Made by a program: the position numbers and the translations under genes. Under the pieces are notes generated by a model. It saw nothing but the letters and a program-made list of their open reading frames with translations. It searched no databases and was not told the origin of the DNA. From Deltaproteobacteria bacterium (GTDB taxonomy: Bacteria > Desulfobacterota > Desulfobacteria > Desulfobacterales > JAFDCJ01): DNA of 6,432 bases. Of this stretch, positions 2,284 through 6,172 are shown piece by piece (the stretch's first letter is position 1; every line of letters begins with the position of its first letter). The stretch spans positions 1 through 6,432 of the forward strand of contig JAJRVC010000232.1 in assembly GCA_024277475.1 (NCBI GenBank). The letters run 5' to 3'.

Positions 2284-3573
2284 TTACCAATTCACATCTG
2301 AGGAGTTCAAGCAACTCCATATGCCACTTGTAAAAATTACAGACTGTGATTGGATTAATAACCTACCGGTACCGTACACATCCGATGGTAATATTTCGAA
2401 ATTAAGAATACTATCGTAACGAGCGCAATCTATTTGATTGTCGGCAAGCGTCAAGGTTACATAATACATCCCTTGATTTAGTGGAGGGGAAGGAAACACA
2501 ACACGAAACACCCCATTTTGAATTCTCGATCCTAATATTTTCTTGCTTTGAGCATAACTCGTGGTCCCTAGTACCGTAAAGCCTAATGGTGTATTAATTC
2601 TTATACCTAATCCTGGATTAAACAATGGCAATGAACTTGAAAATTCCACTTGAACACCAAAAGAACACCCCATTTTAACACTTTGAATGGGTTTTCCTTC
2701 CTCATCAACAATCGCCGCTCTAGTTAAATGGGGAACGTGATTGTCGGTAGTGTCTAGCAAAACAATATTTTGCCCTCCACTACCTGAAATATATTGAGTC
2801 ACAACATCTTCGGTTTTTGTCTTTATCAGGATGTTGCCATTTTTTAGCAGCAAAGAAGAACTGCATAGAGCAGATATAGCCGCCATATTATGACTAACAA
2901 ACAACACCGTTCGCCCCTCCTTAGCCACATCCCCCATCTTCCCCAAACACTTCTTCTGAAACTCCACATCCCCCACCGCCAGCACCTCATCAATGAGCAA
3001 AATTTCCGGCTCTAAGTACGCTGCAACTGAAAACGCCAGACGCACCCGCATCCCACTTGAATACCGCTTCACTGGCGTATCAATAAACTTTTCCACCTCC
3101 GAAAAATCCACAATCTCGTCGAACTTGCGGTTAATCTCGGCACGGGTCATCCCCAAAATCGTGCCGTTCAGGTAGATGTTCTCGCGGCCGGTCAGTTCGG
3201 GGTGGAAGCCGGTACCCACTTCCAGCAGGCTGGAGACACGGCCATGTAGTTCGACACGGCCGCTGGTAGGGTGGGTAATGCGCGACAGAATTTTGAGCAG
3301 GGTACTCTTGCCGGCCCCGTTGCGGCCGATGATGCCCACCACTTCGCCGGGCTTGACTTCAAAGGAGACATCGCGCAAAGCCCAGATGATGTCGGGGTCG
3401 TCGTGCCGCCCATTGCCGCTGAAGGTGGTGAGGCGACGCAGGCGGCGCAGGTTTTTACCCGGCCGCTTAATCCAATCCGACGCTGCCCCGGCCAGCGTAT
3501 CATGCACCTCTTCCTTCAGGCCGATACGGTACCGTTTGGATAAATTTTCAACACGAATAGCAATATCTGACAT
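2284..3573 (-). CDS. Wzt-type ABC transporter ATPase for polysaccharide export, with C-terminal substrate-recognition domain
   Basis: The 429-residue product is a complete nucleotide-binding subunit of a polysaccharide ABC exporter (Wzt/TagH group). It shows Walker A GRNGAGKST (83-91), signature YSSGMRVRLA (171-180), Walker B ILLIDE (191-196) and the H-loop histidine His228 in FVSHNM. A basic linker (about 25-60) precedes the P-loop domain. Residues about 265-405 match the layout of the beta-sandwich Wzt C-terminal domain, which in characterised Wzt proteins binds the finished glycan. It would power glycan export at the cytoplasmic membrane with a Wzm-type permease, but no intact permease is in the window. 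The ATG lies 5 bp after the stop of the TPR gene and has only a poor ribosome binding site, so translation may be coupled. Composition changes sharply within the gene: 41 of 60 bases are G+C in 3181-3240, but 24 of 60 in 2341-2400. Confidence 0.93.
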   Translation of the reverse strand: MSDIAIRVENLSKRYRIGLKEEVHDTLAGAASDWIKRPGKNLRRLRRLTTFSGNGRHDDPDIIWALRDVSFEVKPGEVVGIIGRNGAGKSTLLKILSRITHPTSGRVELHGRVSSLLEVGTGFHPELTGRENIYLNGTILGMTRAEINRKFDEIVDFSEVEKFIDTPVKRYSSGMRVRLAFSVAAYLEPEILLIDEVLAVGDVEFQKKCLGKMGDVAKEGRTVLFVSHNMAAISALCSSSLLLKNGNILIKTKTEDVVTQYISGSGGQNIVLLDTTDNHVPHLTRAAIVDEEGKPIQSVKMGCSFGVQVEFSSSLPLFNPGLGIRINTPLGFTVLGTTSYAQSKKILGSRIQNGVFRVVFPSPPLNQGMYYVTLTLADNQIDCARYDSILNFEILPSDVYGTGRLLIQSQSVIFTSGIWSCLNSSDVNW

Positions 3574-3578
3574 TTGAT

Positions 3579-4547
3579 TTAATCGTCCGCCACGAGGCGC
3601 TCAAGCGCGTTCCGGACAGTTTCGTTCTCCGGGTCTGTGAGCAATACCTGCCGGTAAGCGGCCACGGCCTTGTCTGTTTCTCCGGCCGCTTCGTAAATTG
3701 CTCCGGCTCGCAGATAATATCTTGGGGTTGAATTCATAACAAGTGCCTGTTCGATGGACGAAATTGCGAGCGCCGGGTTTCCGTTCAGATGGTAAGCCCA
3801 CGCCATTTCAAAATAAGCTTCATCCAGCCGCGCTGCCCCTGGATAAAACAGATGGGCATTCTGAATGACCTGTTCCCAGGTTGCAGCGGCCTCGCCCCAG
3901 CGTTCCTGCTCCATTAAAAGCTGGGCAAGAGTGCGATACCAATAGGGGCGAACACGGTCTAAAGAGGTGCTGTTTAACAGGGCTTCCCGCAACACTTCTT
4001 CTGCTGCCAAAAGCTCGCCTCTTTTTTTATAGAAACTTACCAGTTCACCTGTTGCCTGGCGCGGGTCAATTTCCCAGGCGGTAAGATAAGCTTCATACGC
4101 AACATTGGGCTGCGCCGCGCCCTCAGCGGCTTCGGCCACCCGCAGCAATCCTTCTACAAATCCGATTTGTTCCCAGGCATTTATCGCGGCCGGATAATCT
4201 CCTTGAGCTTCATAAGCGTAACCCATAAACTGAAGTGCATACGGATCGCTCGCATCCGCCAGGGGTTTCATCAGAGAGATTACCGTTCCCCAATCACCGC
4301 TATTCCTGGCCCGAATGGCCTGCCATGACAAGCTGCGAGGATGGGCTGTGGGCGGTATGGGCAATCTCTCTCCTTCATTCCGGGCAAATCGTACCGTTTC
4401 AAACCAATAGGTGAGCGAGGCGCTGTTGATGCTGGCGACATAAAATAAGCGTGGCGTTATGGAGAGTAAAAACATCAATACCAATACGAAAAGGTCGATG
4501 CGGTAGCGCTTGGAGAAAGATTCAACGCGAATGGCGATGTCAGACAC
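3579..4547 (-). CDS. Membrane-anchored TPR protein whose first 17 codons match a Wzt-type ATPase
   Basis: Starting at GTG 4547, the 322-residue product opens with VSDIAIRVESFSKRYRI, the conserved N-terminus of the Wzt-type ATPases in this window. It then switches in frame to a hydrophobic segment (about 18-38, core LFVLVLMFLLSIT). The KRYR before it suggests a cytosolic N-terminus with the rest outside. Helical TPR-like repeats follow: DPYALQFMGYAYEAQGDYPA (about 101-120), one near 202-229, one near 242-272 and a C-terminal one near 275-307 (AGAIYEAAGETDKAVAAYRQ). TPRs mediate protein contacts; a scaffold role in glycan assembly or export is conceivable but unproven. GTG 4547 is preferred because it aligns with the ATPase start codons and lies 4 bp after the upstream stop. 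A TTG at 4595 would add 16 residues overlapping the PIN gene. An internal ATG within the membrane segment is another possible ancestral start. Neither the GTG nor the TTG has a clear ribosome binding site. Confidence 0.75.
   Translation of the reverse strand: MSDIAIRVESFSKRYRIDLFVLVLMFLLSITPRLFYVASINSASLTYWFETVRFARNEGERLPIPPTAHPRSLSWQAIRARNSGDWGTVISLMKPLADASDPYALQFMGYAYEAQGDYPAAINAWEQIGFVEGLLRVAEAAEGAAQPNVAYEAYLTAWEIDPRQATGELVSFYKKRGELLAAEEVLREALLNSTSLDRVRPYWYRTLAQLLMEQERWGEAAATWEQVIQNAHLFYPGAARLDEAYFEMAWAYHLNGNPALAISSIEQALVMNSTPRYYLRAGAIYEAAGETDKAVAAYRQVLLTDPENETVRNALERLVADD
4497..4547 (-). repeat. Second copy of the wzt 5' end, serving as the start of the TPR gene
   Basis: These 51 bases encode 17 residues, 14 of which match residues 1-17 of the complete ATPase (differences at positions 1, 10 and 11). 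The bases are much more diverged and use GC-rich codons (ATCGCC, AAGCGCTACCGC), so the source is more likely a different wzt paralogue than a fresh copy of either neighbour. Similarity ends abruptly where the membrane segment begins. Confidence 0.75.
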
Positions 4548-4551
4548 AGAG

Positions 4552-4923
4552 TTAGCGGATGGGCAACTTGCGAATGCGAACAGTCGTGTCGTCAACAGTG
4601 ACAGCGCTGCCCGCAGACAAGGGGTTCTCGATTTGGGGAAGGACTCGTCTCAGTCGCTGTGTAACTACGCTCGGATCGGTGTTCGTAAATCGCAAGGTAA
4701 CCAGGCTGGGGCGGTCATTGCCGTCAAGCGCCAGCAGTGCGGAAAAATCGAGATCTTGTGTGATCACAACCATCCCTTGCTGTCGAGCCAGGTCCAGAAT
4801 CTCCGAGTCAGCCGCGTCTGCGGGAAGCAGGCTGGTGACTCGTGTGATGTCATACCCATCTTTCCCCAGGTCCTTAACGGTCAGCGGCGAAAGGTTCATG
4901 TCCGCCAGGAATCGTAGCTGCAC
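4552..4923 (-). CDS. DUF5615 PIN-like protein, putative toxin of a toxin-antitoxin pair
   Basis: From GTG 4923 the product has 123 residues and matches the DUF5615 PIN-like family. It shows the N-terminal acidic motif LRFLADMNLSP (Asp8), an acidic helix DSEILDLA (39-46) and the second acidic motif VITQDLDF (53-60, with Asp57 and Asp59). PIN-fold proteins are metal-dependent RNases that use such clustered acidic residues. Many DUF5615 genes are paired with a DUF433 gene, as here, and are predicted toxins, although activity is rarely shown. GTG 4923 is chosen over TTG 4929 because GAGG (4931-4934) is 7 nt before GTG but only 1 nt before TTG. The start also agrees better with the short N-terminus usual for the family. 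The gap to the DUF433 stop is 12 bp, and the TPR gene begins 4 bp after this stop. The last ~25 residues beyond the core are not recognised. Confidence 0.85.
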   Translation of the reverse strand: MQLRFLADMNLSPLTVKDLGKDGYDITRVTSLLPADAADSEILDLARQQGMVVITQDLDFSALLALDGNDRPSLVTLRFTNTDPSVVTQRLRRVLPQIENPLSAGSAVTVDDTTVRIRKLPIR

Positions 4924-4930
4924 GGTCAAG

Positions 4931-4934
4931 CCTC
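4931..4934 (-). promoter_or_regulatory. Ribosome binding site deciding the GTG start of the PIN-like gene
   Basis: GAGG on the minus strand lies 7 nt before GTG 4923. The alternative TTG 4929 is too close to it. Confidence 0.55.
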
Positions 4935-4935
4935 G

Positions 4936-5163
4936 CTATGTTGGCGCCATCTGTAACTGATCGGACACCACCCAGGCGGCGTATTGCATAGCCTGCTTCA
5001 CATCATCATCATCTAATTCCGGGTAAGCGTCCAACACTTCCTGAACAGAGGCGCCGCTCGCCAGCATTTTCAGGATGACACTCACCGTGATCCGCATTCC
5101 GCGAATGGTGGGTTGGCCTAGACAGACGTTGGGATTGATTGTTATGCGTTCAAGTCTTTCCAT
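4936..5163 (-). CDS. DUF433 protein, putative antitoxin partner of the PIN-like gene
   Basis: The 75-residue product, from ATG 5163, has the DUF433 hallmark INPNVCLGQPTIRGMRITV (residues 9-27). A helix with KMLASGASVQEVLDAYP (32-48) and the acidic turn ELDDDDVKQAMQYAA (49-63) follow. DUF433 proteins are small helix-turn-helix-like proteins usually encoded just before a DUF5615 PIN-like gene and are regarded as the antitoxin or DNA-binding partner. The inference is therefore from family and pairing. ATG 5163 is preferred to ATG 5172: the AGGAG site (5173-5177) directly abuts the first ATG and is 9 nt from the second. A promoter with a perfect -10 lies just upstream, so this is the first gene of the transcript. 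If the pair behaves like other toxin-antitoxin operons it would autoregulate this promoter. Confidence 0.87.
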   Translation of the reverse strand: MERLERITINPNVCLGQPTIRGMRITVSVILKMLASGASVQEVLDAYPELDDDDVKQAMQYAAWVVSDQLQMAPT

Positions 5164-5172
5164 CGTGATCAT

Positions 5173-5241: not shown

Positions 5242-5288
5242 AGGGTGAGCAACCGTGGCGAAATCAGGCGCGCGTGCATCCCGCTGAA

Positions 5289-5316
5289 GCCTGCCCTGAG
5301 TTTACCGAAGTGTCGA
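5289..5316. repeat. Possible dispersed palindromic repeat at the 3' breakpoint of the wzt remnant
   Basis: GCCTGCCCTGAGTTTACCGA and the bases after it resemble the interspersed CCTGAGC-TTGTCGAAG type of repeat found between genes in many GC-rich bacteria. It begins exactly where similarity to wzt ends. The family assignment is from memory of the consensus, not from a search. Confidence 0.35.
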
Positions 5317-5356
5317 TGTTCTCCCGGCCGGACAGTTCGGGGCGGAAGCCGGTAAC

Positions 5357-5371
5357 CATCCTTCGACGATG
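5357..5371. repeat. Small palindrome at the internal deletion scar of the wzt remnant
   Basis: CATCCTTCGACGATG has arms CATC/GATG around a TCGA core. It lies between the two stretches that align with the intact wzt, replacing about 150 bp. It resembles half of a CATCGTCGAAGG-type interspersed repeat. Confidence 0.35.
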
Positions 5372-5598
5372 CAACGAAACGTCTTTTAACGCCCAGATGA
5401 TGTCTTCGGGATCGTGTCCATTTTCGCCAAAGCGGGTCAGGCGGCACAGGCGGCGCAGGTTTTTGCCCGGGCGCTTAATCCAGTCTGCGGCCGCTCCGGC
5501 AAACGTATCATGTATCTCTTCTTTACGGCCGATACGGTACCGTTTCGACAAATTCTCTACTTTAATCGCAATATCAGACATGAAAACTTTGGTGTCCC

Positions 5599-5868
5599 TT
5601 ACACCACATCCGCAAACACCCGTTCCATCCGCCGGAAATAAAGCGCCCCGCTGACAAACAACCCCAGCGCCGTCAGCGACCCCACACCAATCAAATCCCA
5701 CGGCATCGGGTTGGTCCCCAGTAGGGCGCTGCGAAACCCTTCAATCACCCCCGCCATCGGGAACAGGCCGTATAACAACCGGTACTGCGCCGGCACACTG
5801 CTGGCCGGGTACACCACCGGCGCGGCATACATCAGCAGCTGCACCAGCACCGGCACAAACAGCTGGTA
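5599..5868 (-). pseudogene. 3' remnant of a Wzm-type ABC-2 permease gene
   Basis: About 89 codons of in-frame similarity run from TAC 5866-5868 to the TAA at 5599. They encode the C-terminal end of a polysaccharide ABC-2 permease: QLLMYAAPVVYPASSVP, then GLFPMAGVIEGFRSALLG, a last membrane helix (LIGVGSLTALGLFVSGALYF) and the short tail RRMERVFADVV. Whole permeases of this family have roughly 260-290 residues and six membrane helices, so about two thirds are missing. An in-frame TGA (5869-5871) sits right before the homologous part and what precedes it is unrelated repeat-rich DNA. A GTG at 5856 could start an 85-residue product, but it would have only about two helices and is unlikely to be a working channel. 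The ATPase remnant starts 17 bp downstream. Confidence 0.82.
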
Positions 5869-6006: not shown

Positions 6007-6070
6007 GGGCGAGACAGGCGGGAGACAAGGTCGTTCGGCATGGCAAAGGTATCACCCGCCTGTCTCGCCC
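6007..6070. repeat. 16-bp perfect inverted repeat, hairpin-forming dispersed element
   Basis: GGGCGAGACAGGCGGG (6007-6022) is the exact reverse complement of CCCGCCTGTCTCGCCC (6055-6070), with a 32-nt loop. An outer 8-bp pair, TAGGGGCG (5890-5897) and CGCCCCTA (6066-6073), overlaps it. No T-run follows on either strand, so it is not a standard terminator. A miniature mobile or REP-like element is the most likely explanation (inference). Confidence 0.7.
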
Positions 6071-6110
6071 CTACCAACCATAAATCCAACGAAACACGCC
6101 CAAATCATTT

Positions 6111-6131
6111 GCTCATTGCTCATTGTTCATT
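6111..6131. repeat. Three tandem heptamers
   Basis: GCTCATT, GCTCATT and GTTCATT follow one another without gaps. The third differs at one base. Short heptamer arrays like this are common in intergenic DNA of some filamentous phyla. Confidence 0.7.
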
Positions 6132-6172
6132 GTTGGCCGGGTACAACCAACACGGCCGTACCCGGCCAACAA
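6130..6172. repeat. 15-bp perfect inverted repeat after the right-edge gene
   Basis: TTGTTGGCCGGGTAC (6130-6144) pairs perfectly with GTACCCGGCCAACAA (6158-6172) around a 13-nt loop. It starts 10 nt after the TAG of the right-edge gene on the minus strand. No T-run follows, so it may be a weak or factor-assisted terminator, an mRNA-stabilising hairpin, or a repeat element. Confidence 0.65.

What the first reader, a model, noticed from the sequence alone, without database searches (positions are those of the whole stretch)
4497..4595. TPR membrane protein begins with a captured Wzt N-terminus
The TPR gene starts with 17 codons that match the Wzt-type ATPase N-terminus (14 of 17 residues) and then joins a membrane anchor in frame. 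The join falls at KRYRI, just before the hydrophobic segment, where the basic residues could also serve as the positive-inside flank. Recombination seems to have given the TPR gene a new start codon and N-terminus. It may also target the protein to the same complex as the ATPase, since a shared N-terminal peptide could compete for or copy a docking site. The capture is directly visible; the docking idea is inference.
Basis: partly seen in the sequence, partly recalled or inferred. Interest (0 to 1): 0.72.

Follow-up and report, generated by a model that had tools for sequence, protein, structure and literature searches.

The report
Membrane protein with borrowed ATPase start
A membrane-anchored repeat protein in a bacterial sugar-coat export locus begins with the first 17 amino acids of the export ATPase, a gene fusion also seen in a distant relative and most likely serving just as its start and membrane-side tail.

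Summary
The TPR gene (3579-4547, minus strand, GTG start) begins with 17 codons matching the Wzt N-terminus: 15 of 17 residues with the start read as Met, 14 as Val; best by chance 5-7 in 60 simulated windows. The finding's 4548-4595 is not part of it.

Capture from a wzt start is supported: of 13 relatives whose N-terminus can be read, 12 have unrelated short basic tails before a membrane helix. The thirteenth, P0003 (113/281 identical over the core), begins with the same Wzt peptide joined at the same residue to a similar helix (27/36 over leader plus helix). So the fusion is not private to this window, and the window's two wzt copies (39/51 and 35/51 bases) are unlikely recent donors.

Relatives lie in polysaccharide loci. 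Best reading: an old fusion to the start of a lost wzt body, keeping a start codon and a cytosolic basic tail for a membrane anchor. The docking idea has no positive support: the peptide is predicted disordered, excludes Wzt's known interface helix and has lost two residues invariant in 8 Wzts. One old fusion versus repeated capture or block exchange stays open, because P0002's start could not be read. Function of the TPR protein is inferred from context.

The parts
4497..4547 (-). Wzt-derived leader: first 17 codons of the TPR gene, GTG start at 4545-4547
   Evidence: 15/17 residues, 39/51 bases to the intact wzt
3579..4547 (-). TPR gene, 322 aa: leader, membrane helix, TPR solenoid
   Evidence: ORF, Pfam TPR families, model with helix 17-56 and helical repeats 72-320
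4440..4496 (-). Membrane helix joined to the leader (residues 18-36)
   Evidence: sequence; 14/19 identical to P0003; orientation inferred from charges
2284..3573 (-). Intact wzt (ABC_tran plus Wzt_C), 5 bases after the TPR stop
5264..5581 (-). Broken wzt copy; reading frame lacks the Walker A region
   Evidence: 164-base repeat, 80% identical to the intact copy; no Pfam match
5599..5856 (-). 3' fragment of an ABC-2 permease (wzm-like)
   Evidence: frame ends upstream at a stop; 35-38% identical over 81 residues to permeases of L014, L026, L027; no Pfam match on its own
4552..4929 (-). DUF5615 gene; its stop lies 4 bases before the TPR start
4936..5172 (-). DUF433 gene, 6 bases before DUF5615

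Best explanation
The gene is an old in-frame fusion of the first 17 codons of a wzt to a membrane-anchored TPR gene that belongs to polysaccharide-export loci. It probably arose when a wzt upstream of the TPR gene lost its body by deletion or recombination, leaving its start codon and first codons joined to the TPR gene just before the membrane helix (inferred). The fusion predates the split of the window's protein from P0003. The leader now acts as translation start and as a short cytosolic tail whose KRYR is the positive-inside flank of an N-in, C-out anchor, a role filled in relatives by unrelated basic tails. The TPR solenoid would lie outside the cytoplasm and serve as a scaffold in polysaccharide export or ligation (inferred from gene context). 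Shown: the Wzt match, relatives with and without it, the shared join, the basic tails, the polysaccharide context. Inferred: deletion route, single origin, topology, function.
For: Wzt match far above chance. P0003 has the leader and the join at the same residue. In a tree of the core (from residue 37 on, 13 rows) P0003, P0001 and P0002 group at 89/90. Leader plus helix 27/36 between P0001 and P0003 against 113/281 for the rest; permutation P 0.004 for any 36-column window as good, windows taken every third column. The 12 tails of members without the leader carry net +1 to +4. Selected neighbours (10 ORFs of 6 loci): in L013, L018 and L019 the TPR gene lies between an ABC2_membrane permease and a Wzy_C ligase, in L011 and L023 next to a Polysacc_synt flippase, in L003 next to a DegT aminotransferase. 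Gaps of 6, 4 and 5 bases between DUF433, DUF5615, TPR and wzt make reinitiation at the GTG plausible; no clear ribosome-binding site was seen by eye.
Against: P0002, which groups with P0001, shows no leader as deposited; its first Met aligns to M25 inside the helix, so its start is doubtful, but its DNA could not be read. Counted as lacking the leader, the tree needs two changes and only 12% of bootstrap trees allow one. The 89/90 group is below the tree tool's own mark of 95/80. The excess likeness of the helix in the P0001-P0003 pair (14/19, against 4-5 of 19 between either and P0004, P0005, P0007, P0008) could mean that the 5' block moved between genes. No transcript, protein start or topology data.
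Confidence: 0.55

Rival explanations
1. Repeated capture or block exchange: wzt starts are recombination sites in these loci, and the leader, or leader plus helix as one block, was acquired separately by, or passed between, the lineages of the window's protein and P0003.
For: Leader plus helix is far more alike (27/36) than the rest (113/281) in this pair, while in the P0004/P0005/P0007 group helix and core are alike. P0002 as deposited lacks the leader. The window holds three wzt 5' ends and decayed copies.
Against: Same join residue in both; the core tree groups the two with P0002 at 89/90; P0002's start is doubtful.
Confidence: 0.24
2. Recent local capture in this genome from one of the wzt copies of the window.
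For: Three wzt 5' ends within 2.1 kb.
Against: Only 39/51 and 35/51 bases shared with the two copies, less than between them (42/51); P0003 has the same fusion.
Confidence: 0.06
3. The leader is kept as a docking or assembly peptide for the Wzm-Wzt complex.
For: Leader identity between P0001 and P0003 (13/17) is above the core rate (binomial P 0.003); polysaccharide-export context; P0003 keeps all four residues invariant in 8 Wzts.
Against: Predicted disordered; the described Wzt interface element is the gate helix (PMC6379404 passages), which is outside the captured piece; the window's leader has lost L11 and G18; 12 of 13 readable relatives do without it. Two Wzt-derived peptides resemble each other anyway.
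Confidence: 0.07
4. The leader is not translated; the protein starts at M25 within the helix, as in the deposited P0002.
For: P0002's deposited Met aligns with M25; no clear ribosome-binding site before the GTG (by eye).
Against: It would cut the membrane helix; the leader frame is open, and 8 of 10 codon changes against the intact wzt are synonymous (not decisive); P0003's deposited start includes the leader.
Confidence: 0.06

Closest known systems
Wzt, ATPase of O-antigen ABC exporters (PDB 8dku, 7k2t, 6amx; Pfam ABC_tran + Wzt_C)
   Same: The first 17 residues of the TPR protein match the Wzt N-terminus at 15 of 17
   Different: Only the N-terminal stretch is present (the first strand and the adenine-stacking tyrosine by inference); no ABC_tran or Wzt_C match, so not an ATPase
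Unnamed membrane-anchored TPR family seen in Chloroflexota polysaccharide loci (P0002-P0005, P0007, P0008; L003, L011, L012, L013, L018, L019, L021, L023)
   Same: N-terminal membrane helix, an N..S motif after it, TPR repeats; polysaccharide gene context in the scanned loci
   Different: Of the 13 relatives that can be read only P0003 has the Wzt leader; the other 12 tails are short, basic and unrelated
LapB/YciM and PilW-type envelope TPR proteins (NCBIfam)
   Same: Generic TPR similarity
   Different: Far under the curated cut-offs: 22.1 against 363 bits for LapB, 30 against 154 for PilW

Membership tests
Wzt ABC ATPase (for the TPR protein) | ABC_tran domain | tested here: not met
   Pfam scan lists 15 families, none of them ABC_tran or Wzt_C
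Wzt ABC ATPase (for the gene 2284-3573) | ABC_tran plus Wzt_C domain | tested here: met
   ABC_tran 3e-24, Wzt_C 4.6e-13
Membrane-anchored TPR family of these loci | basic tail, N-terminal helix, N..S motif, TPR repeats | tested here: met
Membrane-anchored TPR family of these loci | beside polysaccharide export or ligation genes | tested here: met
   window: permease fragment and wzt copies. Relatives: 5 of the 6 loci with scanned neighbours have a permease/ligase or flippase, the sixth (L003) a DegT aminotransferase; L012 (recF-like neighbour, by eye) and L021 were not scanned, and the neighbours of P0002-P0008 are unread
Membrane-anchored TPR family of these loci | N-in, C-out topology | not testable with these tools
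   only net charges of the tails are at hand
LapB/YciM | NCBIfam score above the curated cut-off | tested here: not met
   22.1 bits against 363

The most novel reading that the evidence does not exclude
Wzt leader plus membrane helix form one functional module: a piece of the export ATPase, borrowed long ago and kept by selection, that ties a scaffold protein to the Wzm-Wzt exporter, for example by pairing with the ATPase sheet or by co-translational assembly with Wzt.
Probability: 0.07. Interest if true: 0.62.

Novelty: new variant of a known kind. Interest (0 to 1): 0.33.

Why it matters
It is a clear small case of how a bacterial gene obtains a new N-terminus: the start of a transporter ATPase gene in front of an accessory gene of the same kind of locus, present in two proteins only 40% identical over their core. 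It also draws attention to an unnamed membrane TPR protein that recurs between permease and ligase genes of polysaccharide loci. If the leader were shown to matter as a peptide, it would be an unusual transporter fragment reused as a tether.

Tried and rejected
Chance similarity: rejected. Recent duplication of a neighbouring wzt start: disfavoured on base identity. Docking through a known Wzt interface element: the gate helix is the Wzt part described at the Wzm interface and is not in the captured piece (PMC6379404, passages; I had recalled the LG-loop as part of Wzt, the paper assigns it to Wzm). PMC9445017 (passages) gave nothing on the N-terminus. Selection on the leader codons: against the intact wzt 8 synonymous to 2 non-synonymous codons (P 0.00015 if all 11 base changes were neutral, but 0.61, 0.30, 0.13 and 0.05 if only 3, 4, 5 or 6 fell on the TPR branch), so not used as proof. 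A Wzt model from one sequence had mean pLDDT 33 and was discarded. A solved-structure search with the first 60 residues of Wzt found nothing, so equating Y15 with Tyr11 of the A. aeolicus Wzt is an inference.

Searches that led nowhere: genome contigs with the single protein, viral contigs, plasmids, protein search with residues 15-125 (itself only, among 41 candidates; it missed even P0002-P0005, so it is weak evidence of absence), paper searches (listings and abstract starts only). The DNA behind P0002, P0003, P0004, P0005, P0007 and P0008 was not reached; their start codons and neighbours are unread. Rows left out of the counts: P0006 and P0009-P0047 (weak or generic TPR matches), L001 (Halobacillus, TPR part only), L002/L004 (C-terminal fragment at a contig end), L005-L010 (generic TPR), L024, L025, L060 (matches that begin after the helix, in longer proteins). 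L021 (fragment) and L023 were left out of the tree. The 8 Wzts of A4 were picked for having a comparable N-terminus, the window's included; many of the 31 ATPase frames had none by my pattern.

Full report
What was checked. The window holds a row of minus-strand genes: a 3' fragment of an ABC-2 permease ending at 5599, a broken wzt (5264-5581), DUF433 (4936-5172), DUF5615 (4552-4929), the TPR gene (3579-4547), an intact wzt with Wzt_C domain (2284-3573), a hexapeptide transferase (1618-2265), a TylF-type methyltransferase (572-1336) and a gene cut by the window end (1-432). No whole genome is held for the window and its taxon is not known. The named relative locus that led to the others, L002, is an Ardenticatenales MAG, phylum Chloroflexota.

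The observation. Codons 1-17 of the TPR gene read (M/V)SDIAIRVESFSKRYRI and match the start of the intact Wzt at 15 of 17 residues (14 if GTG is written Val); DNA identity is 39/51 to the intact and 35/51 to the broken wzt, against 42/51 between those two. The best match in 60 simulated windows was 5 to 7 of 17. The match starts at the GTG 4545-4547; the finding's further bases to 4595 are not part of it. DUF433, DUF5615, TPR and wzt are separated by 6, 4 and 5 bases, so translation of the TPR gene by reinitiation is plausible; no clear ribosome-binding site was seen by eye.

Relatives. Two protein searches gave six clear relatives (P0002-P0005; P0007 and P0008, whose other 39 rows are weak or generic TPR matches). 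A third search, with residues 15-125, found only the query. Genome searches with the N-terminal model A3 gave 1 of 7 (order of G001, E 1e-8), 3 of 400 (phylum), 9 of 396 (class), 1 of 48, 2 of 46, 2 of 121, 1 of 10 and 3 of 181 (orders of G365, G256, G243, G093, G392; E 1e-6) and 7 of 341 (second class draw, E 1e-5). The sets overlap, and the wide draws scored only the best 11 to 13 candidates per genome, so these are lower bounds; some of the matches are partial (L024, L025, L060). With the full-length model A2 it was 4 of 396, 5 candidates per genome scored. Eight loci were read at the N-terminus (L003, L011, L012, L013, L018, L019, L021, L023; starts chosen by eye): none has a Wzt-like tail, and the best match to the 18-residue Wzt start in the three forward frames of the 660 bases examined at each was 4 to 6. 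Among the proteins P0004, P0005, P0007 and P0008 have unrelated tails, P0002 starts inside the helix and cannot be judged, and P0003 begins MSDIAIRVDNLSKRYRVGLFLLVLVFLLSVTPRLF. So 2 of 14 members with a readable start have the leader, the window's protein included.

Age and origin. P0001 and P0003 share 13/17 in the leader, 14/19 in the helix and 113/281 in the rest. Residues 1-36 are the best 36-column window of the pair (27/36; permutation P 0.004, windows every third column). To the unfused P0004, P0005, P0007 and P0008 the helix of P0001 or P0003 is 4 to 5 of 19 identical, while within the P0004/P0005/P0007 group helix (11 to 13 of 19) and core are about alike. In a tree of the core (13 rows, from residue 37 on) P0003, P0001 and P0002 group at 89/90, under the tool's mark of 95/80. 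One old fusion with a slowly changing N-terminal block explains this most simply; exchange or repeated capture is the main rival. With P0002 counted as lacking the leader the tree needs two changes and only 12% of bootstrap trees allow one. Whether P0002 really lacks it is the open point.

Why a wzt start. In L018 the TPR gene follows the permease gene directly and precedes a Wzy_C ligase; in L019 a 130-residue frame lies between permease and TPR gene, in L013 about 1 kb without a frame of 130 residues. A wzt lies further down in L026 and L027, the wider stretches around L018 and L019; none was found at E 1e-5 in the other stretches searched (L014, L015, L016, L017, L028, L029, L002). wzt usually follows wzm (recalled), so the TPR gene can sit where a wzt would begin, and loss of a wzt body there would leave its start joined to the TPR gene. 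The window shows such decay: the permease is a fragment and one wzt frame lacks the Walker A region. The intact wzt is a mosaic, GC3 0.66 in the ATPase part and 0.32 in the C-terminal part, like the genes downstream (0.31, 0.34). The route itself is inferred.

How it most likely works. AlphaFold on 5 aligned sequences (mean pLDDT 86, pTM 0.72) gives residues 1-15 under pLDDT 50, one long helix 17-56 and helical repeats 72-320; the best 50 Foldseek matches are TPR or similar repeat proteins, and no NCBIfam equivalog listed for it reaches its cut-off. All 14 tails tallied have net charge +1 to +4, which fits an N-in anchor; the leader's KRYR meets that need. Docking lacks positive support: the described Wzt part at the Wzm interface is the gate helix (PMC6379404, passages); L11, K13, Y15 and G18 are invariant in 8 aligned Wzts, and the window's leader keeps only K13 and Y15, though P0003 keeps all four. 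It is not excluded, since the leader is better conserved than the core.

Verdict.

Noticed in passing
2284-3573: The intact wzt is a composition mosaic: ATPase part GC3 0.66, C-terminal part GC3 0.32 like the downstream genes, as if a crossover that brought in the sugar-specific cassette lay inside wzt near 2800-2900.
   Followed up: partly
4552-5172: A DUF433-DUF5615 pair (toxin-antitoxin-like by recalled reputation; no PADLOC match) lies between a broken wzt and the TPR gene, with gaps of 6 and 4 bases.
   Followed up: partly
5264-5856: A permease reduced to its 3' end followed by a wzt with an internal deletion: a decayed export pair.
   Followed up: partly
L013, L018, L019: An unnamed membrane TPR gene recurs between ABC-2 permease and Wzy_C O-antigen ligase genes.
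   Followed up: partly
6007-6172: A perfect 15-base inverted repeat (6130-6144 / 6158-6172) and a 19-base one at 95% (6007-6025 / 6052-6070) upstream of the permease fragment.
   Followed up: no
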